Part shown: piece by piece, positions 16,996 to 25,674 of the stretch | Position numbering within the stretch: the stretch's first letter is position 1 | How the letters are laid out: each line of letters begins with the position of its first letter | Source: Acidimicrobiaceae bacterium | GTDB lineage: Bacteria > Actinomycetota > Acidimicrobiia > Acidimicrobiales > RAAP-2 | Direction of reading: 5' to 3' | Assembly: GCA_947456245.1 (NCBI GenBank) | Contig: CANGPS010000001.1 | Location: forward strand, 62,001-126,000 | Length of the DNA: 64,000 nt | Program-made: the position numbers and the translations under genes | Notes under the pieces: generated by a model | What the model was told of the DNA's origin: nothing | Database searches by the model: none | The model's input: the letters and a program-made list of their open reading frames with translations, nothing else

Positions 16996-17403
16996 GTGCT
17001 GCGCATCTCCACCGCCATCGCCGACGAGATGGTCGCGCACTGCCTGCTCGGGCTTCCTGACGAGGCGTGCGGCCTCCTCGCTGGTCCCGAGGGGACCGGC
17101 GACGTGGCGGCCATCTACCCGACGGACAACCTCGCTGCCTCCGCGCTCGTCTACACCGTGGATCCTCGGGCCCACCTGCGTGCCGACCGGGCTGCCGAGG
17201 ACGCTGGGAACGTGCTGATCGGCGTCTTCCACTCGCACACGCACACGGAGGCCTACCCGTCCCCGACCGATGTGGCGCAGGCACCGGATCCCACCTGGCA
17301 CTACGTGATCGTGTCGCTTCGTGACATGGCACCGGCGATTCGCAGCTTCCGGATCATCGAGGGGGAGATCACCGAAGAGGCCGTGGAGGTCATCGGCCGC
17401 TAG
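16996..17403 (+). CDS. mec: Mec-type JAMM (M67) metallopeptidase
   Basis: The 135-aa protein is a minimal JAB1/MPN domain. The JAMM zinc site is complete: Glu23 in DEACGLL and HSH-x7-S-x2-D in FHSHTHTEAYPSPTD near residues 78-91. In Mycobacterium the Mec enzyme releases cysteine from CysO-cysteine made by CysM. Here cysO and cysM lie 7 kb downstream, so the same pathway is very likely complete but split. It could also trim the C-terminus of CysO. Confidence 0.88.
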   Translation: MLRISTAIADEMVAHCLLGLPDEACGLLAGPEGTGDVAAIYPTDNLAASALVYTVDPRAHLRADRAAEDAGNVLIGVFHSHTHTEAYPSPTDVAQAPDPTWHYVIVSLRDMAPAIRSFRIIEGEITEEAVEVIGR

Positions 17404-17526: not shown

Positions 17527-18072
17527 ATGACCGCGACCGTCGTCCACCACGCCCAGAGCCTCTCGAACACCTATGGGGTCTGCGTCCTGCTGATGCGGGT
17601 GATGCTCGGTGGGATGATCGCCGCCCACGGCCTCAACAAGTTCTTCGGTGGCGGCAAGATCGCCGGCACCGCCGCCTGGTTCGACTCGATGGGGATGCGC
17701 CCGGGCAAGCTCAACGCGCTGATGGCGGCGACGACCGAGGTCGGCGCCGGGATCCTGCTCATCATCGGCCTGCTGACGCCGCTGGCCTGTGCCGCCCTGG
17801 TCTCGCTGATGGTGGTGGCGATCATCACCGTCCACTACAAGAACGGGTTCTTCGTGTTCAACCCCGGCCAGGGCATCGAGTACTGCCTGGTGGTGGCCGT
17901 GATGGCCATCGCCCTCGGCGGCCTCGGCGGTGGGAAGTTCTCCATCGACCACGTGGCCAAGATCTGGACGCTGCGACCGTCGATCGGCCTCGCCGTCGCG
18001 GCGGTGGTCGGCATCGGTGGCGCGCTGCTGCAGCTGGCCACCTTCTACCGCCCGTCGAAGGCCGCGAGCTGA
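17527..18072 (+). CDS. DoxX family membrane protein
   Basis: The 181-aa protein has four hydrophobic helices. The family features are VCVLLMRVMLGGMIAAHGLNKFFGG near residue 18-42 and TEVGAGILLIIGLLTPLAC near 70-90. DoxX-like proteins are small quinone-linked or stress-related membrane proteins; specific activity is unknown. It has a GGAGGA ribosome-binding site and precedes the FAD dehydrogenases on the same strand, separated by a perfect hairpin. Confidence 0.8.
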   Translation: MTATVVHHAQSLSNTYGVCVLLMRVMLGGMIAAHGLNKFFGGGKIAGTAAWFDSMGMRPGKLNALMAATTEVGAGILLIIGLLTPLACAALVSLMVVAIITVHYKNGFFVFNPGQGIEYCLVVAVMAIALGGLGGGKFSIDHVAKIWTLRPSIGLAVAAVVGIGGALLQLATFYRPSKAAS

Positions 18073-18093: not shown

Positions 18094-18105
18094 CCGGGAG
18101 GTGTG

Positions 18106-19536
18106 ATGCAGGAGCTTCTTCACGTCGATCTGGCTGACGTCGGACCGGCGTCGACCGAGACCGACGTCATCGTCGTCGGATTCGGTGCCGCAGGGACCTG
18201 CGCCGCCCACGCCGCACGCGAGGCGGGGGCAGAGGTCCTGGCCCTCGAGCGCTCGGCGGGTGCAGGCGGAGCGGCGGCACTCGCAGAGGGGATCATCTAC
18301 CTCGGTGGCGGTACGCCGGTGCAGCGTGCCTGCGGGTTCGAGGACTCGGTCGAGAACATGGCGGCGTACCTCATGGCCGCCTGCGGGCCGGAGCCCGACG
18401 AGGCCAAGGTCGTGGCCTATGCCGAGGGCAGCCTCGAGCACTTCGACTGGCTGGTGGCCCGCGGCGTCGAGTTCGATGCCCGGCTCGACGTCGAGACGCA
18501 GATGGCTCCCCGAGACACCCATGGCCTCGTCTGGTCCGGGGGTGAGAACGCCTGGCCGTTCAGCGAGATCGCCACGCCCGCCCCCCGGGGACACCTGGCC
18601 AAGACCAAGAACTCCACCGGATGGCTGCTGATGAAGACGCTGGCTGAGGCCTGCGTGGCCGCCGGGGTCGACGTCTCCTATGACACGAGGGTGACCTCCC
18701 TCGTGGTCGACGAGGGGCGTGTGGTGGGCGTGGTGGCCCAGTCCTACGGCACCGAGTCCGTCTATCTGGCCCGCCGCGGCGTTGTGCTCACCGCCGGAGG
18801 CTTCATCTGGAACGACGAGATGCTGCGACGGCACGCACCGACCCTGCTGCGCGGCACCTGGAAGGTCGGCACCGAGGCCGACGACGGCCGGGCCATCGAG
18901 ATGGCGCAGTCGGTCGGCGCCCAGGTCAAGAACATGCACGTGGGCGAGGTCTCCCTTCCGATCATCCCGCCGCGCGACCTGATCCAGGGGATCATCGTCA
19001 ACGGCCACGGCCAGCGGTTCATCAACGAGGACACCTACATGGGGCGCGTCGGCCAGGCTGCCCTCTACGAGCAGGACGCCACGTGCTTCCTGGTGGTGGA
19101 CGAAGCGGCGTACCAGCCCAACTGGATGGGCCTCAGCGCCACCTGGGTCTGCGAGACCGCTGCGGAGCTCGAGGCGGAGATGGGCCTTCCGGCGGGCTCA
19201 CTCGAGGCCACGGTCGATCTCTACAACCGGCATGCGGCCCACGGCGAGGACCCCATGTTCCACAAGGCGGCCGAGTGGGTCCGACCGCTGGTGCCACCGC
19301 TGGGTGCCTTCGACCTGCGTCCAGGTGTGGCCCCCTATGCCCCCTTCACGCTTGGGGGCCTCGAGACCCTGGTGTCCGGCGAGGTCGTGAGCCTCGAAGG
19401 TGGGGTGGTCGAAGGGCTCTTCGCTGCCGGCCGGACCACCTCAGGCATCTGCAGCTTCGGGTATGCATCCGGGCTGTCGATCGGCGACTCGACGCTGTTC
19501 GGTCGCTTCGCTGGACGTCGGGCCGCCCAGGGCTGA
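18106..19536 (+). CDS. FAD-binding dehydrogenase (ketosteroid-dehydrogenase / fumarate-reductase-like), copy 1
   Basis: The 476-aa flavoprotein has the N-terminal dinucleotide site VIVVGFGAAGTCAAHAAREAG near residue 22 and the FAD contact GAGGAAALAEGIIYLGGG. GGFIWNDEMLRRHAP lies near 230, GQRFINEDTYMGR near 305 and a C-terminal AAGRTTSGICSFGYASG closing the FAD site. These match the succinate dehydrogenase/KstD flavoprotein superfamily. Substrate is unknown; a steroid or acyl 1,2-dehydrogenation is plausible. The ATG follows GGGAGG; GTG three bases earlier is possible. The next gene is a close paralogue. Confidence 0.8.
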   Translation: MQELLHVDLADVGPASTETDVIVVGFGAAGTCAAHAAREAGAEVLALERSAGAGGAAALAEGIIYLGGGTPVQRACGFEDSVENMAAYLMAACGPEPDEAKVVAYAEGSLEHFDWLVARGVEFDARLDVETQMAPRDTHGLVWSGGENAWPFSEIATPAPRGHLAKTKNSTGWLLMKTLAEACVAAGVDVSYDTRVTSLVVDEGRVVGVVAQSYGTESVYLARRGVVLTAGGFIWNDEMLRRHAPTLLRGTWKVGTEADDGRAIEMAQSVGAQVKNMHVGEVSLPIIPPRDLIQGIIVNGHGQRFINEDTYMGRVGQAALYEQDATCFLVVDEAAYQPNWMGLSATWVCETAAELEAEMGLPAGSLEATVDLYNRHAAHGEDPMFHKAAEWVRPLVPPLGAFDLRPGVAPYAPFTLGGLETLVSGEVVSLEGGVVEGLFAAGRTTSGICSFGYASGLSIGDSTLFGRFAGRRAAQG

Positions 19537-19562
19537 GCCCCGCACGATCGTCCCGCTGCGCG

Positions 19563-19568
19563 TAGTGT
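19563..19568 (+). promoter_or_regulatory. TAGTGT -10 box of FAD dehydrogenase copy 2
   Basis: TAGTGT ends 6 nt before the ATG at 19575. The second copy therefore seems to have its own leaderless promoter although it directly follows the first. Confidence 0.45.
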
Positions 19569-19574
19569 GCCGCC

Positions 19575-21023
19575 ATGGTTCGCGACGAGAGCATCTGGCC
19601 CATCGAGCGCAGTGAGGTCGACCAGTTCGACCAGACCGTCGATGTGGTCATCGTCGGGTTCGGCGCCGCCGGCACGGCGGCGATCCTCGGCGCCCGAGAG
19701 GCTGATCCGAGCGCCGAGATCCTGGTCCTCGAGCGAGCAGGCGGTCCGGGTGGAGCCGCAGCGCTGGCCGGCGGGATCATCTACCTCGGCGGCGGCACGG
19801 CCGTGCAGCGGGCCTGCGGCTTCGAGGACAGCCCAGAGAACATGGAGGCCTTCCTGCTTGCCGCCTGCGGGCCGGAGCCTGACGCGGCGAAGATCGCCGC
19901 CTACTGCCACGGGAGCGTCGAGCACTTCGAGTGGCTGGTCGCCGCTGGCCTCGAGTTCGAGCACTCCTTCAGTCATGAGACGCAGATGGAGACCGTCGGT
20001 ACCGAGGGTCTCGTGTACTCCGGTGGCGAGGATGCGTGGCCCTTCACAGAGGTCGCAGCGCCGGCGGCGAGGGGTCACCTCATCCGGACGCCTGGCTCGA
20101 CGGGCAAGCTGCTGATGCGGACCCTGACCACGACCGCGCTCGAGGCGGGTCCCGAGGTCGCCTACGACTCCAGCGTGGAGCGTCTGATCCTCGATGAGGG
20201 TCGTGTCGTGGGCGTGGTGGCGACCCAGCACGGCGTCGTGCGCCGGATCGAGGCCCGGCGTGGCGTGGTGCTGTGCGCCGGGGGCTTCATCTTCAACGAC
20301 GAGATGGTGGCGCGCAACGCCCCAGTGCTGCTCGAGGCCAACTGGAAGGTCGGCACGGAGACCGACGACGGTCGGGGAATCGAGATGGCCCAGGCGGCAG
20401 GAGCGAGGGTCAAGCAGATGCACGCCGGCGAGGTCGCCTTCCCGATCATCCCGCCACGCCGGTTGATGGAGGGCATCCTCGTCAACGGCCGAGGGCAGCG
20501 ATTCATCAACGAGGACACCTACAACGGTCGGATGGGCCAGGCGGCACTCTACGGCGAGCACGGCGACGTGTTCCTGATCATCGATGAGGCGAGCTACGAG
20601 CCGAACTGGATGGGCATCGGCGCCACGTGGGTCTGCGAGACGCCGGCTGAGCTCGAGGCCGAGATCGGCCTTCCTGCAGGTTCGCTTGAGGCCACGCTCG
20701 CGGTCTACAACCGCCATGCCGCTGAGGGCTCGGACCCGATGTTCCACAAGTCGGCCACGCTGCTGCACGCCCTCGAGGGACCGTTGGGAGCGTTCGACCT
20801 TCGGATCGGAAAGATCCCCTACGCCGTCTTCACGCTCGGTGGGCTCGACACGACGGTCGGTGGCGAGGTCCTCGATCTCGCGGGGCGGGCGATTCCGGGG
20901 CTCTACGCCGCCGGACGGACCACGTCAGGGGTGGCGGCCTTCGGCTACGCCTCGGGTCTCTCGATCGGAGACTCGACCTTCTTCGGCCGTCGTGCTGGAG
21001 CGTCGGCGGCCGACGAGGGCTGA
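19575..21023 (+). CDS. FAD-binding dehydrogenase, copy 2 (paralogue)
   Basis: The 482-aa flavoprotein is colinear with the preceding gene: VVIVGFGAAGTAAILGAREA, GGAAALAGGIIYLGGG, GGFIFNDEMVARNAP, GQRFINEDTYNGR and AAGRTTSGVAAFGYASG occur in the same order at the same distances. The N-terminus differs (EVDQFDQTVD). It is an old tandem duplication, well diverged, so the copies may have different substrates or work together. The superfamily is KstD/fumarate reductase; no heme or membrane region is present. Confidence 0.8.
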   Translation: MVRDESIWPIERSEVDQFDQTVDVVIVGFGAAGTAAILGAREADPSAEILVLERAGGPGGAAALAGGIIYLGGGTAVQRACGFEDSPENMEAFLLAACGPEPDAAKIAAYCHGSVEHFEWLVAAGLEFEHSFSHETQMETVGTEGLVYSGGEDAWPFTEVAAPAARGHLIRTPGSTGKLLMRTLTTTALEAGPEVAYDSSVERLILDEGRVVGVVATQHGVVRRIEARRGVVLCAGGFIFNDEMVARNAPVLLEANWKVGTETDDGRGIEMAQAAGARVKQMHAGEVAFPIIPPRRLMEGILVNGRGQRFINEDTYNGRMGQAALYGEHGDVFLIIDEASYEPNWMGIGATWVCETPAELEAEIGLPAGSLEATLAVYNRHAAEGSDPMFHKSATLLHALEGPLGAFDLRIGKIPYAVFTLGGLDTTVGGEVLDLAGRAIPGLYAAGRTTSGVAAFGYASGLSIGDSTFFGRRAGASAADEG

Positions 21024-21028
21024 GCCGA

Positions 21029-24000
21029 TCAGGGCGCCTGGAGCGTGGTGCTCGACACCGCAGTGCTCGAGCTGAGGCCGTAGGTGGCCGTCGCTGCCAC
21101 GGCGAGGATGTCGCCAGCGGTGCTCGATGACGTGTCGAACGAGGAGCTCGAGCTTGCCGAGGTGAGTGCGGTGCAGCCGTAGCCCGCGAGGTATGTCGCC
21201 CCGCCGGCGCCGCTGGCGGAGAGCGTGTCCGCGGGAGCACTGGTGCACTGGTACCAGACGTAGGTGACCGTGGGTGCCGGGTAGCCGAAGGCGCCTGCGG
21301 TCGGCATCAAGGTGTCACCCACGATGGCGCTGGGATCGAGCACGAGGCTCGAGAACCCGGGGGGACCGGTGACGAGGTCGGTCGAGGTCGAGTAGCCCTC
21401 TGAGCTCGTGGTGCCACCGCTGACCGAGACGTCGAGCAAGATCGTCGAGCCGGCGTCGGTCGCTCCGTCGATGGTGTAGCTGGCTGCGGTGGCTGCGGCG
21501 ATGGCGGTGCAGATGCCCGGAGCCGCCCCAGCGTTGAGGGTGCCGTCCACGAGGTCCGTGCAGCGGTACCACTGGTAGGTCATGGAGCTCACCGCCGGCT
21601 CGCCGTAGGTGGTCACGTCGCTGGTCAGGGTACTCCCGGCCGTCGCGGAACCGCTGATGGTGATCGCCCGCAGCCCGACCGGGCCGTCGATGAGGTCGGT
21701 GGAGTTCGCCACTGCTCCAGTATCCGGTGAGATGCCGTTGCTGGCCGTCTCTGCCACCGTCACGTACGAGCCTGCGTCGCTGGACTGGATGGTGTAGGTC
21801 GACGAGGTGGCCCCGCTGATCGCCGTGCAGTCGCCTGGGGGCGTGCTCGAGGTGAGGTCAGGGGAGAGCACCTGGTCGACGCAGTCGTACCACTGGTAGG
21901 AGAGGGTGGCGGTCGGACGGCTGAAGACGGCGTATCCGGCCGACACCGTCGATCCGATGGCCTCGCCGCCCGAGATGTTCACGAAGGCGTTGGTGAAGTA
22001 CGGGGCGTAGAGCGTGAGGCTGCTCGACGCGGCGATGGCCACGGCGTTGGGGCTGTCGCCGTTCGCCGCGGTGATGCGCACGGTCACGTACCTCGTCCGG
22101 TCCGCCGCCACAGGGGTGTAGCTGGCGTCGGTCGCCCCGGAGATCGCCGTGCACCCGGATGGCACGGTGGCGAACGACAGGTTCTGGGTGACGGCGCTGG
22201 TGCAGCGGTACCACTGGTAGGTCAGGTCCGGCGTCGGCGTCCCGGTAGCGGTGACGTTGGCATCGACGCTGCTTCCAACCGTCGGCGTCCCAGAGAGCGA
22301 GGCGGCAGTGATTGACGGGGCCACGCCGACGCCGATGGCATCGACCTGCGTGGCCGTGCCGCCGTCGGTGTTGTCCACCGTGAGGTCGATCGCCCCGCCG
22401 GTGACTCCCGTGACGCTCACGCTCAGGTGGTTGTAGTCGATGTAGGTCGTCGTGCCGAGCGTGGCCGATCCGACGGATCCCGAGTCGACCGAGATCACGG
22501 CGCCGGGGAGGAACTGGCTCCCGACGATGTTCACGGTGTGGGGGTTCGAGTCGAGCGGGATGACATTGGGGGAGAAGCTGGTGAACGAGGGCACGCTCTG
22601 GAAGGTGAACGGCTCCGGCACGACGTTGCGAGCGCCGTTCGGGTTGGTCACGCTGATTCCGATGTTCACCGGGACGTCCCCGCGGATGTCGGTTGTGATC
22701 GTGTTGGAGTCGATCACCGTGGTGTTCTGGTAGCCCGCCGGGATGTTCGAGTTCGAGACCGTGGCACCCGTGGCGAAGTTGCGGCCGGAGATGGTGATGG
22801 TGTGGAACTGGTTGTCGGCCGGGAGCGTGTCAGGGGTGATCGAGTCGATCTCGGGGACGCAGCTGATGCTGATGGCATTGCTGATCGTGACGGAGCCCCC
22901 GACGATGCCAGGGATCCCCGCCGAGCCTGCCTGGGTGGGGTTCGTGATGGTCAGCGAGTCGCTGTCGCTCGAGCACGTTGTCGCCGTGAACGAGACGAAG
23001 AGGTGAGCGGAGTCGTGAAAACCGGTCGTCTGACCCTCGCCGTAGAAGGCCTCCACGGTCAGGTCGGGGATGGGGCCGCTCACCGAGGCCGTGGGGGTGA
23101 GACCAGACTTGGAGGTGGCGGCGAAGTCTGAGCCGACGATGGTGACCTGCTGTGGGTTCCCACTGTTGGAGACGGCGTAGGGGAAGCTGTTCACCCGATC
23201 GCCATATCCGCGGACCTTCGGAGCCGGGGTGATGTAGAGCGCCCTGGGGCTGGTGATGGACAGACCGTTCGCAAAGCGGAGCGTCATGGCCCGGTCGCCG
23301 ACCACAGCCGTCGCTCCGAAGGAGAGCGTGCCGGTGATCGAGCTCGCCTTGGCGGCGTTCCAGGCAGAGGTGTTGAAGCTGGGGCTGGCGTTAGAGCCGA
23401 ACGAGACCGAGGTCAGGTTCCCGCTCGTAGTGGGGAGGCCGTCGATCGACACGGTCGTGGTCGCCGAGTTCTGACCGAAGTAGAAGTAGCCACCGACCTT
23501 CGGAAGGTTGACGAAACTGAGGCGGTTCGTCGCCGAGCCGACAGAGGTGCTGAACCCGCCGTCAGAAGGGTTCGACACCTGGATGACCCGCTTGGTCCCC
23601 GTCGGCGTCGCCGACACCACGGCGGTCGCGGTCAGGGACGTCGAGCTGTTGCGAGTCACATTGCTCCACGTCACGCCGGGGACCGCCAGCGGTGTCGCCC
23701 CGGCGCGGAATCCGGTCCCGGTGATGGCGATGTCCTCGGAGCCACCCTTGTAGAGGCTGGACGTGTCGATCGACGTGATCGTCGGTGCGGCGTCGACGGT
23801 GAGCGATGAGGAAGTGGAGCCGGCCTTGTGGTTCTTGACGGTGACGACCTTGGCGCCGGCCGCATCGTTCGAGCCCGGCAGGCGGACGATCACGTTGAGG
23901 TGGGTGCTCGTGGTGCCGGAAGCGAGGCCGAGCACTGCGACATTTCCTGAGGTGCCGGTGATCGTCACCTTGGGGCTGGCGAAGTCCGTGCCGGTGATCG

Positions 24001-24199
24001 GGATGATCACCTTTGCGCCGGTAGCGGCGACTGCGGAACCGCCGTTGACGCTGGTGATGGTGGGCGTGGCGCCGGTGGCACCGGCCGACCGGGCGTGGGC
24101 GGCGAGGAAGGCGAGGACGACGAGGCTGGCTGCAGCGATCAGCAGTGCGAGCGAGCGGGTACGGCTCCCTCGCAGGCTGTGGTCAATGGAACTTCCCAT
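21029..24199 (-). CDS. Secreted multidomain TIG/Ig-like protein
   Basis: The 1056-aa protein has a basic N-terminus and a signal or anchor helix at residues 17-38. At least four TIG-like domains follow, each opening with a PxITSI-type strand and a GTDF/GTGF/GRNF/GSQF turn (near 46, 137, 455 and 545). The C-terminal third holds four Ig-like repeats of about 107 residues, each with a YQWYRC-type strand and a second Cys before TAIS. It ends ...TLQAP with no sorting signal. It is probably exported and surface-associated; adhesion is inference. It lies tail to tail with the FAD gene, 5 bp apart. Confidence 0.75.
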   Translation of the reverse strand: MGSSIDHSLRGSRTRSLALLIAAASLVVLAFLAAHARSAGATGATPTITSVNGGSAVAATGAKVIIPITGTDFASPKVTITGTSGNVAVLGLASGTTSTHLNVIVRLPGSNDAAGAKVVTVKNHKAGSTSSSLTVDAAPTITSIDTSSLYKGGSEDIAITGTGFRAGATPLAVPGVTWSNVTRNSSTSLTATAVVSATPTGTKRVIQVSNPSDGGFSTSVGSATNRLSFVNLPKVGGYFYFGQNSATTTVSIDGLPTTSGNLTSVSFGSNASPSFNTSAWNAAKASSITGTLSFGATAVVGDRAMTLRFANGLSITSPRALYITPAPKVRGYGDRVNSFPYAVSNSGNPQQVTIVGSDFAATSKSGLTPTASVSGPIPDLTVEAFYGEGQTTGFHDSAHLFVSFTATTCSSDSDSLTITNPTQAGSAGIPGIVGGSVTISNAISISCVPEIDSITPDTLPADNQFHTITISGRNFATGATVSNSNIPAGYQNTTVIDSNTITTDIRGDVPVNIGISVTNPNGARNVVPEPFTFQSVPSFTSFSPNVIPLDSNPHTVNIVGSQFLPGAVISVDSGSVGSATLGTTTYIDYNHLSVSVTGVTGGAIDLTVDNTDGGTATQVDAIGVGVAPSITAASLSGTPTVGSSVDANVTATGTPTPDLTYQWYRCTSAVTQNLSFATVPSGCTAISGATDASYTPVAADRTRYVTVRITAANGDSPNAVAIAASSSLTLYAPYFTNAFVNISGGEAIGSTVSAGYAVFSRPTATLSYQWYDCVDQVLSPDLTSSTPPGDCTAISGATSSTYTIQSSDAGSYVTVAETASNGISPDTGAVANSTDLIDGPVGLRAITISGSATAGSTLTSDVTTYGEPAVSSMTYQWYRCTDLVDGTLNAGAAPGICTAIAAATAASYTIDGATDAGSTILLDVSVSGGTTSSEGYSTSTDLVTGPPGFSSLVLDPSAIVGDTLMPTAGAFGYPAPTVTYVWYQCTSAPADTLSASGAGGATYLAGYGCTALTSASSSSSFDTSSSTAGDILAVAATATYGLSSSTAVSSTTLQAP
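21041..22300 (-). repeat. Four Cys-paired Ig-like repeats in the TIG protein
   Basis: The TYQWYxC strand recurs at about 22215, 21893, 21567 and 21250, a spacing near 322 bp (107 residues). Each unit also has a Cys about 20 residues later, suggesting one disulfide per domain. The last unit is the most diverged (TYVWYQC, with a glycine-rich insertion). Confidence 0.7.
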
Positions 24200-24414: not shown

Positions 24415-24696
24415 ATGCCAGTTTCAATCAGGCTGCCAACCGTGCTCCGACCGCACGTCGCCGGGCAGGCCACCGTGAGCATCGACGGGGCGACGATCGG
24501 TGAGGTCCTCTCGACCCTGGTCCAGCAGAATCCGGGCCTCTCCGGTCAGGTCATCGCCGAGGACGGCACGTTGAACAAGTTCGTGAACATCTACATCAAC
24601 GACGATGACGTGCGGTACCTCCAGCAGCTCGACACCCCGGTGACGGATGGTGACGAGGTCTCGATCCTGCCGGCGGTCGCCGGCGGCGCCGGCTGA
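24415..24696 (+). CDS. cysO: CysO, ubiquitin-like sulfur carrier (ThiS/MoaD fold)
   Basis: The 93-aa beta-grasp protein matches mycobacterial CysO: VSIRLPTVLRPHVAGQ at the start, KFVNIYINDDDVRYL in the middle and DGDEVSILPAVAGG near the end. Its thiocarboxylated C-terminal glycine should donate sulfur to CysM. Unusually, two residues (AG) follow the Gly-Gly, so a protease would have to expose it. The ATG lies behind GGAGGA; upstream in-frame codons lack support. It is followed by cysM 12 bp later. Confidence 0.9.
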   Translation: MPVSIRLPTVLRPHVAGQATVSIDGATIGEVLSTLVQQNPGLSGQVIAEDGTLNKFVNIYINDDDVRYLQQLDTPVTDGDEVSILPAVAGGAG

Positions 24697-24708: not shown

Positions 24709-25674
24709 ATGGCGCGCTACGCATCGGTCCTCGACCTCATCGGTGAGACGCCGATGGTCGACGTCTCGGCGCTCAGTCCGAGCCCGAACGTCACGATCCT
24801 CACCAAGCTCGAGGGGCGGAACCCGGCTGGTTCGGTCAAGGACCGCGTTGCCCTGAGCCTGGTCGAGCAGGCCGAGGCCGACGGCATCCTCGTGCCGGGA
24901 GCTCCCGACCAGGTGCTCATCGAGCCCTCGTCGGGCAACACCGGCATCGCCCTGGCCATGGTCTGCAGGATGAAGGGCTACCACCTCAAGGTGGTGCTTC
25001 CGACCAACGTCTCGGTCGAGCGCCGCCAGCTGCTCGAGGTCTTCGGTGCCGAGATCATCGAGTCTCCCGGCTCAGAGGGATCGAACGGGGCGGTGCGCAT
25101 GGCGCGAGCCCTGGCGGCGGAGCATCCCGAGTGGGTATTCCTCTATCAGTACGCCAATCCAGCGAATCCCAAGGCGCACTATGAGCACACCGGACCGGAG
25201 ATCTTCCGCGACGTGCCGGAGATCACCCACTTCGTGGCAGGCCTCGGGACCTCGGGGACCCTGCTCGGCGTGGGTCGCTACCTCAAGGAGCAGAACCCGG
25301 ACATCCAGGTGTGGGCCATCGAGCCGCCCACGGGGGAGATGGTCGACGGACTGCGCAACCTCGATGACGGCTACATCCCGCCGATCTTCGCCGAGCTCGG
25401 CGGCGCCGAGATCCTGGACCGCAAGACCGTGGTCCGGCCTCGGGAGTCGATCGAGTGGACCCGCAGGATGACCGAGCTCGGCCTCTTCGTCGGGATCTCG
25501 TCGGGCGCGATCATGGCCGGCGCCATCCGCTGCGCCAAGCAGATCCCCGAGGACCAGGAGGCGACCATCGTGACGATCGCCTGCGACGACGGCTGGAAGT
25601 ACCTGTCGACCGGGGCCTGGACCGAGGACATCGACACTGTCGTGGACCGCGCCTCGAAGGTGATCTACTTCTAG
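24709..25674 (+). CDS. cysM: O-phosphoserine sulfhydrylase / cysteine synthase CysM
   Basis: The 321-aa PLP enzyme uses O-phosphoserine and CysO thiocarboxylate to make CysO-cysteine. The PLP lysine is Lys44 in AGSVKDR, PSSGNTG lies at 73-79 and the phosphate loop GLGTSGT near 180. The ending VIYF and the length resemble Mycobacterium CysM. It is co-transcribed with cysO. Assignment as the CysO-dependent type rests on that linkage. Confidence 0.92.
   Translation: MARYASVLDLIGETPMVDVSALSPSPNVTILTKLEGRNPAGSVKDRVALSLVEQAEADGILVPGAPDQVLIEPSSGNTGIALAMVCRMKGYHLKVVLPTNVSVERRQLLEVFGAEIIESPGSEGSNGAVRMARALAAEHPEWVFLYQYANPANPKAHYEHTGPEIFRDVPEITHFVAGLGTSGTLLGVGRYLKEQNPDIQVWAIEPPTGEMVDGLRNLDDGYIPPIFAELGGAEILDRKTVVRPRESIEWTRRMTELGLFVGISSGAIMAGAIRCAKQIPEDQEATIVTIACDDGWKYLSTGAWTEDIDTVVDRASKVIYF

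What the first reader, a model, noticed from the sequence alone, without database searches (positions are those of the whole stretch)
24415..24696. CysO extended by two residues beyond its Gly-Gly
The mycobacterial protein ends at ...PAVAGG; here the sequence is ...PAVAGGAG. Sulfur loading needs a free terminal glycine, so a protease must remove AG. JAMM enzymes such as QbsD do exactly this for QbsE, and a Mec-type JAMM enzyme is encoded 7 kb upstream. It may have two jobs: maturing CysO and releasing cysteine.
Basis: partly seen in the sequence, partly recalled or inferred. Interest (0 to 1): 0.6.

Follow-up and report, generated by a model that had tools for sequence, protein, structure and literature searches.

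The report
CysO precursor with removable C-terminal cap
This actinobacterium's cysteine-making sulfur-carrier protein carries two extra end residues that must be cut off before it can work, almost certainly by its one Mec-type protease; such capped carriers are already known and are common in related bacteria, though never seen here on the sister carrier ThiS.

Summary
CysO at 24415-24696 is encoded with two residues (Ala-Gly) beyond the PAVAGG that ends the M. tuberculosis chain. The assembly (about 92% complete) has one JAMM protein, the Mec orthologue at 16996-17403, with an intact JAMM motif and JAMM fold; in close relatives mec lies near cysO with only doxX between. ThiS is never capped (0 of 24), and no carrier was capped in genomes lacking JAMM (0 of 14, only one of them a CysO). 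Caps start with Ala, Ser or Cys in 51 of 65 cases, as expected if Mec reads the cap like the cysteine of its CysO-Cys substrate; the second residue is free. Capped carriers plus a JAMM protease are already published (QbsE/QbsD; Streptomyces PtmS2/PtmS3 with PtmS1; archaeal CsUb/CsRpn11), so this is a new member of a known kind. The mycobacterial end is one common variant, not the rule. Cleavage by this Mec is inferred, not shown.

The parts
24415..24696 (+). cysO: ThiS/MoaD-family sulfur carrier, 93 aa, precursor form ending PAVAGG-AG
24688..24693 (+). two-codon cap GCC GGC (Ala-Gly) between the Gly-Gly codons and the TGA stop
24709..25674 (+). cysM: cysteine synthase of the O-phosphoserine/CysO type; the LRN arginine of M. 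tuberculosis CysM is conserved
16996..17403 (+). mec: JAMM/MPN+ metalloprotease, 135 aa; motif residues E23, H79-S80-H81, P88-S89, D92
17527..18072 (+). doxX-like gene; the only gene between mec and cysO in a close relative that lacks the insertion (L216)
18103..24199 (.). insertion between doxX and cysO: two related FAD flavoproteins (+) and a TIG-domain secreted protein (-); present in L215, absent in L216

Best explanation
CysO is made as a precursor whose Gly-Gly is blocked by Ala-Gly. Mec, the JAMM metalloprotease already needed to release cysteine from the CysO-Gly-Gly-Cys adduct, also cuts after the Gly-Gly of the precursor and exposes the terminal glycine. The single rhodanese-E1 (MoeZ-like) enzyme then adenylates and sulfurates it, CysM joins the thiocarboxylate to O-phosphoserine, and Mec releases cysteine and resets CysO. 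Because Mec must be present for the cycle anyway, a short tail that starts with a small residue resembling cysteine (Ala, Ser, Cys) costs nothing. The cap is therefore best read as a tolerated, fast-changing pro-peptide rather than a conserved regulatory device. MoaD, capped by one Ala in the same genome, is probably a second pro-carrier for the same enzyme. Shown here: the sequences, gene linkage, motif and predicted fold of Mec, and the distribution of caps. Inferred: the cleavage, its order and its cost.
For: Cap real and recurrent: CysO capped in 46/91 JAMM-bearing genomes. Single JAMM gene and single E1 in the own assembly. Mec homologues adjacent to cysO in most of the class; JAMM residues E23, H79, H81, P88, S89, D92 identical in all 125 homologues; AlphaFold model pLDDT 89 matches PfJAMM1, also in complex with SAMP2 (TM 0.80-0.83), and CsRpn11. 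Internal control: ThiS 0/20 capped in JAMM+ genomes versus CysO 46/91, Fisher 6e-6; in 20 genomes with both tails known, 13 CysO and 0 ThiS are capped. JAMM-negative genomes: 0/14 carriers capped. First cap residue Ala/Ser/Cys in 51/65 versus 7/18 for the codon after the stop in uncapped genes, p = 0.003; Ala is kept through four synonymous codons while the second residue varies. At least 14 capped/uncapped changes on the CysM tree. Precedent: removal of the JAMM gene ptmS1 abolished thioplatensimycin production, taken by its authors as use of capped carriers PtmS2/PtmS3 in Streptomyces (PMC6006322); Mec releases cysteine from CysO-Cys in M. tuberculosis (PMC3227635).
Against: No cleavage was observed. 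All counts are on related genomes, so the Fisher values overstate independence. The JAMM-negative set is small (7 MoaD2, 4 ThiS, 2 MoaD, 1 CysO at a contig edge); within MoaD2 alone the contrast is not significant (16/70 vs 0/7, p = 0.33). The assembly is about 92% complete, so a second JAMM protein cannot be excluded. About 22% of caps start with other residues (V, E, Q, I, R, M, W, G).
Confidence: 0.8

Rival explanations
1. The cap is removed by another peptidase (a general carboxypeptidase or an unrelated protease) and Mec only releases cysteine.
For: Caps differ in length and sequence (1-14 residues), which a processive carboxypeptidase could handle; no cleavage by Mec was measured.
Against: A general carboxypeptidase would also tolerate caps on ThiS, but ThiS is never capped (0/24). 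The first cap residue is constrained while later ones are not, which fits endoproteolysis at GG|X. In Streptomyces, loss of the JAMM gene alone stopped the pathway that uses capped carriers (PMC6006322).
Confidence: 0.1
2. The cap is a regulatory pro-peptide: it keeps CysO inert until Mec is active and so gates sulfur flow into cysteine.
For: Capped in 22 of 31 genomes of the own family; Ala at the first position kept through synonymous change.
Against: Capping switches on and off at least 14 times across the class, the second residue differs between congeners about 80% identical, and near relatives with the same cluster have no cap. Mec is needed for cysteine release in both forms, so a gate at the cap adds little.
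Confidence: 0.07
3. The capped protein is not sulfurated; it serves as a ubiquitin-like modifier or is inactive, and cysteine comes from the CysE/O-acetylserine route.
For: The genome has a CysE over the curated cut-off; CysO scores as SAMP1 and Mec weakly as desampylase (below its cut-off) in NCBIfam.
Against: cysO stays next to cysM, CysM keeps the arginine associated with O-phosphoserine use, and PAVAGG is conserved in nearly all CysO. A modifier would need a free glycine as well.
Confidence: 0.03

Closest known systems
Mycobacterium tuberculosis CysO-CysM-Mec-MoeZ cysteine pathway
   Same: Homologous carrier (3dwg_C, 1.5e-23), CysM (8e-91), a Mec-type JAMM gene and an E1-rhodanese
   Different: M. 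tuberculosis CysO is encoded with a free Gly-Gly; here Ala-Gly follows. mec is 7 kb away. The E1 here has rhodanese at the N-terminus
QbsE/QbsD, and Streptomyces PtmS2/PtmS3 with JAMM PtmS1 (capped sulfur carriers; PMC6006322, and Godert 2007 cited there)
   Same: Residues after Gly-Gly on a sulfur carrier; one JAMM protease; a mix of capped and free carriers in one genome
   Different: Those feed thioquinolobactin or thioplatensimycin; here the carrier sits with cysM for cysteine. The caps differ (PtmS2 MV, PtmS3 C; here AG)
Caldiarchaeum CsUb precursor/CsRpn11 and CsSAMP precursors/CsJAMM (PMC6043591)
   Same: JAMM protease cuts precisely after Gly-Gly of a ubiquitin-fold precursor; fold match to the Mec model
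   Different: Ubiquitin/SAMP system rather than cysteine synthesis; nine-residue cap on CsUb
Deinococcus DRJAMM acting on the MoaD-MoaE fusion (PMC8832034)
   Same: A bacterial JAMM frees the C-terminal glycine of a sulfur carrier so it can work
   Different: The follower is a whole enzyme (MoaE), not a short cap

Membership tests
CysO (cysteine sulfur carrier) | ThiS/MoaD fold family and closest to M. tuberculosis CysO | tested here: met
   PF02597 4.7e-16; best PDB match is CysO 3dwg_C
CysO (cysteine sulfur carrier) | gene linked to an O-phosphoserine-type cysM | tested here: met
   cysM starts 12 nt after the cysO stop; best matches are M. tuberculosis CysM entries, LRN arginine kept
CysO (cysteine sulfur carrier) | encoded C-terminus is Gly-Gly, as in M. 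tuberculosis | tested here: not met
   ends GGAG; but about half of the CysO in the class are capped, so this is a feature of the M. tuberculosis form rather than of the family
CysO (cysteine sulfur carrier) | carries a thiocarboxylate and donates it to CysM | not testable with these tools
   needs mass spectrometry
Mec / JAMM (MPN+) metalloprotease | JAMM zinc motif E...H-S/T-H-x7-S-x2-D | tested here: met
   E23, H79-S80-H81, S89, D92; E, both H, S89 and D identical in 125 homologues
Mec / JAMM (MPN+) metalloprotease | JAMM fold | tested here: met
   AlphaFold pLDDT 89, TM 0.80-0.88 to 2kks and PfJAMM1
Mec / JAMM (MPN+) metalloprotease | hydrolyses CysO-Cys | not testable with these tools
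   no assay
capped sulfur carrier (QbsE type) | extra residues after Gly-Gly and a JAMM gene in the genome | tested here: met
capped sulfur carrier (QbsE type) | JAMM removes the extra residues | not testable with these tools
   inferred from distribution and precedent only

The most novel reading that the evidence does not exclude
One Mec enzyme is the general uncapping and release protease for the cell's sulfur carriers: it matures CysO and MoaD precursors and also frees cysteine, reading the cap as a stand-in for the cysteine of CysO-Cys. The carrier C-termini then drift freely wherever Mec acts, while ThiS, outside its reach, is held at Gly-Gly.
Probability: 0.45. Interest if true: 0.45.

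Novelty: new member of a known kind. Interest (0 to 1): 0.33.

Why it matters
It shows that the textbook free Gly-Gly end of CysO is only one of two common states, that annotation by analogy with M. tuberculosis hides a maturation step, and that Mec plausibly has a second role in primary metabolism. It also gives a simple rule to test: a cap is permitted only where the JAMM protease acts, and its first residue is small like cysteine.

Tried and rejected
Assembly error or frameshift: rejected, congeners from other assemblies are capped too. Cap as a by-product of cysO-cysM overlap or spacing: rejected, the distance from Gly-Gly to the cysM start is alike in capped and uncapped genes (medians 19.5 and 16.5 nt), and here the stop is 12 nt before cysM. 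Test of JAMM presence against capping on MoaD2 alone: too few JAMM-negative genomes. The original papers on 2-thiosugar carriers and on QbsE/QbsD are not held; they were used only through citations in PMC6006322. A literature search with CysO, JAMM and 'sulfur carrier protein' together found nothing. Early in the work the own family looked 100% capped in the class sample; a larger sample gives 22 of 31.

Full report
Observation. The ORF 24415-24696 gives a 93-residue ThiS-family protein ending ILPAVAGGAG. Its best solved relative is M. tuberculosis CysO (3dwg_C), which aligns end to end and stops at PAVAGG. cysM follows 12 nt after the stop; its closest solved relatives are the M. tuberculosis O-phosphoserine sulfhydrylase entries, and the arginine in the LRN motif is kept. 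The JAMM gene lies at 16996-17403, same strand. So the two extra residues, and the distance to mec, are as stated.

The surroundings. In the whole assembly (about 92% complete) there is one JAMM protein and one E1/ThiF protein, which carries a rhodanese domain at its N-terminus. Four ThiS-fold proteins were found: CysO (GGAG), ThiS (GG), a thrC-linked MoaD-like carrier here called MoaD2 (GG), and MoaD next to moaE (GGA). Two carriers are thus encoded blocked and two free, the same mix reported for a Streptomyces strain in PMC6006322. In a close relative, L216, the order is mec-doxX-cysO-cysM; in L215 two FAD proteins and a TIG-like protein lie between doxX and cysO, as in the window. The 7 kb gap is therefore a derived insertion in an old cluster, and the mec gene is the positional orthologue.

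Distribution. I read the C-termini of carriers from a sample of 198 class genomes and 31 family genomes. After removing repeats, CysO linked to mec or cysM is capped in 46 of 91 JAMM-bearing genomes; caps are 1-14 residues, two being commonest. MoaD2 is capped in 10 of 41 thrC-linked cases and 4 of 27 where no neighbour was in reach, two further unlinked CysO/MoaD2-like proteins carry A, MoaD is capped in 3 of 13, ThiS in none of 20. In genomes without a detected JAMM gene none of 14 carriers is capped, though only one of them is a CysO and that one sits at a contig edge. In 20 genomes where both are known, CysO is capped in 13 and ThiS in none. Capped CysO also occurs in other classes of the phylum (A, R, MR, HR, SGS, SGSS, C), while the two closest relatives of M. 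tuberculosis CysO in that sample are free. Capping changes state at least 14 times on a CysM tree of 106 rows.

What the caps look like. In CysO caps the first residue is Ala in 31 and Ser in 5 of 46; over all carriers it is Ala, Ser or Cys in 51 of 65. The codon after the stop in uncapped genes gives those residues in 7 of 18, p = 0.003, a figure that ignores relatedness. Ala is kept through all four codons, while the second position differs even among congeners about 80% identical or more: AG, AN, AA, AH, SV, A. I read this as a first residue that the protease must accept and a remainder that does not matter. Mec's known substrate is the CysO-cysteine adduct (PMC3227635), so a small residue at that place is what one would expect. 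This last link is my inference.

The protease. All 125 Mec homologues keep the glutamate, both histidines, the serine and the aspartate of the JAMM motif. The AlphaFold model (pLDDT 89) matches Pyrococcus JAMM1, including its complex with SAMP2, and CsRpn11; CsRpn11 removes nine residues from the CsUb precursor exactly after Gly-Gly (PMC6043591).

Verdict. CysO here is a precursor. Removal of Ala-Gly by Mec is the best explanation (0.8), by analogy with QbsD/QbsE and the Streptomyces ptmS1 knockout, and by the restriction of caps to carriers in JAMM-bearing genomes. It is a new member of a known kind. A regulatory role for the cap is not supported by how easily it comes and goes.

Noticed in passing
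L006:1432-2589 (-), own genome contig C2: The only E1 has a rhodanese domain before the ThiF domain (22-109, then 128-363). PMC3227635 describes the rhodanese-like domain of M. tuberculosis MoeZ as C-terminal, so the order is reversed.
   Followed up: partly
L004:1690-1760: MoaD of the same genome ends PPVSGGA, one residue past Gly-Gly; two other family members (L291, L301) also have A, the rest end at GG.
   Followed up: yes
L239 and L240 (Dehalococcoidia/Chloroflexi MAGs): A CysO-like domain runs in the same ORF, directly after its Gly-Gly, into an E1/ThiF-like enzyme; a separate CysO capped by A and a MoaD2 capped by V or C lie nearby. The fusion would need cutting at Gly-Gly to load sulfur.
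   Followed up: no
window 18103-19536 and 19575-21023: Two related FAD flavoproteins in tandem, probably a duplication, inserted with a TIG-domain secreted protein between doxX and cysO; the same arrangement is in L215.
   Followed up: partly
L231, L237: Public MAG records labelled Acidobacteria and Saccharibacteria carry contigs with the same lengths and (near) match positions as class members G102 (C69) and G099 (C36); the record labels look wrong.
   Followed up: no
G055, G067, G106, G118 (same family): Near-complete genomes (96-97%) with no JAMM gene detected; no mec-linked CysO was found in them and the carriers read there end at a free GG, which suggests loss of the whole CysO route.
   Followed up: partly
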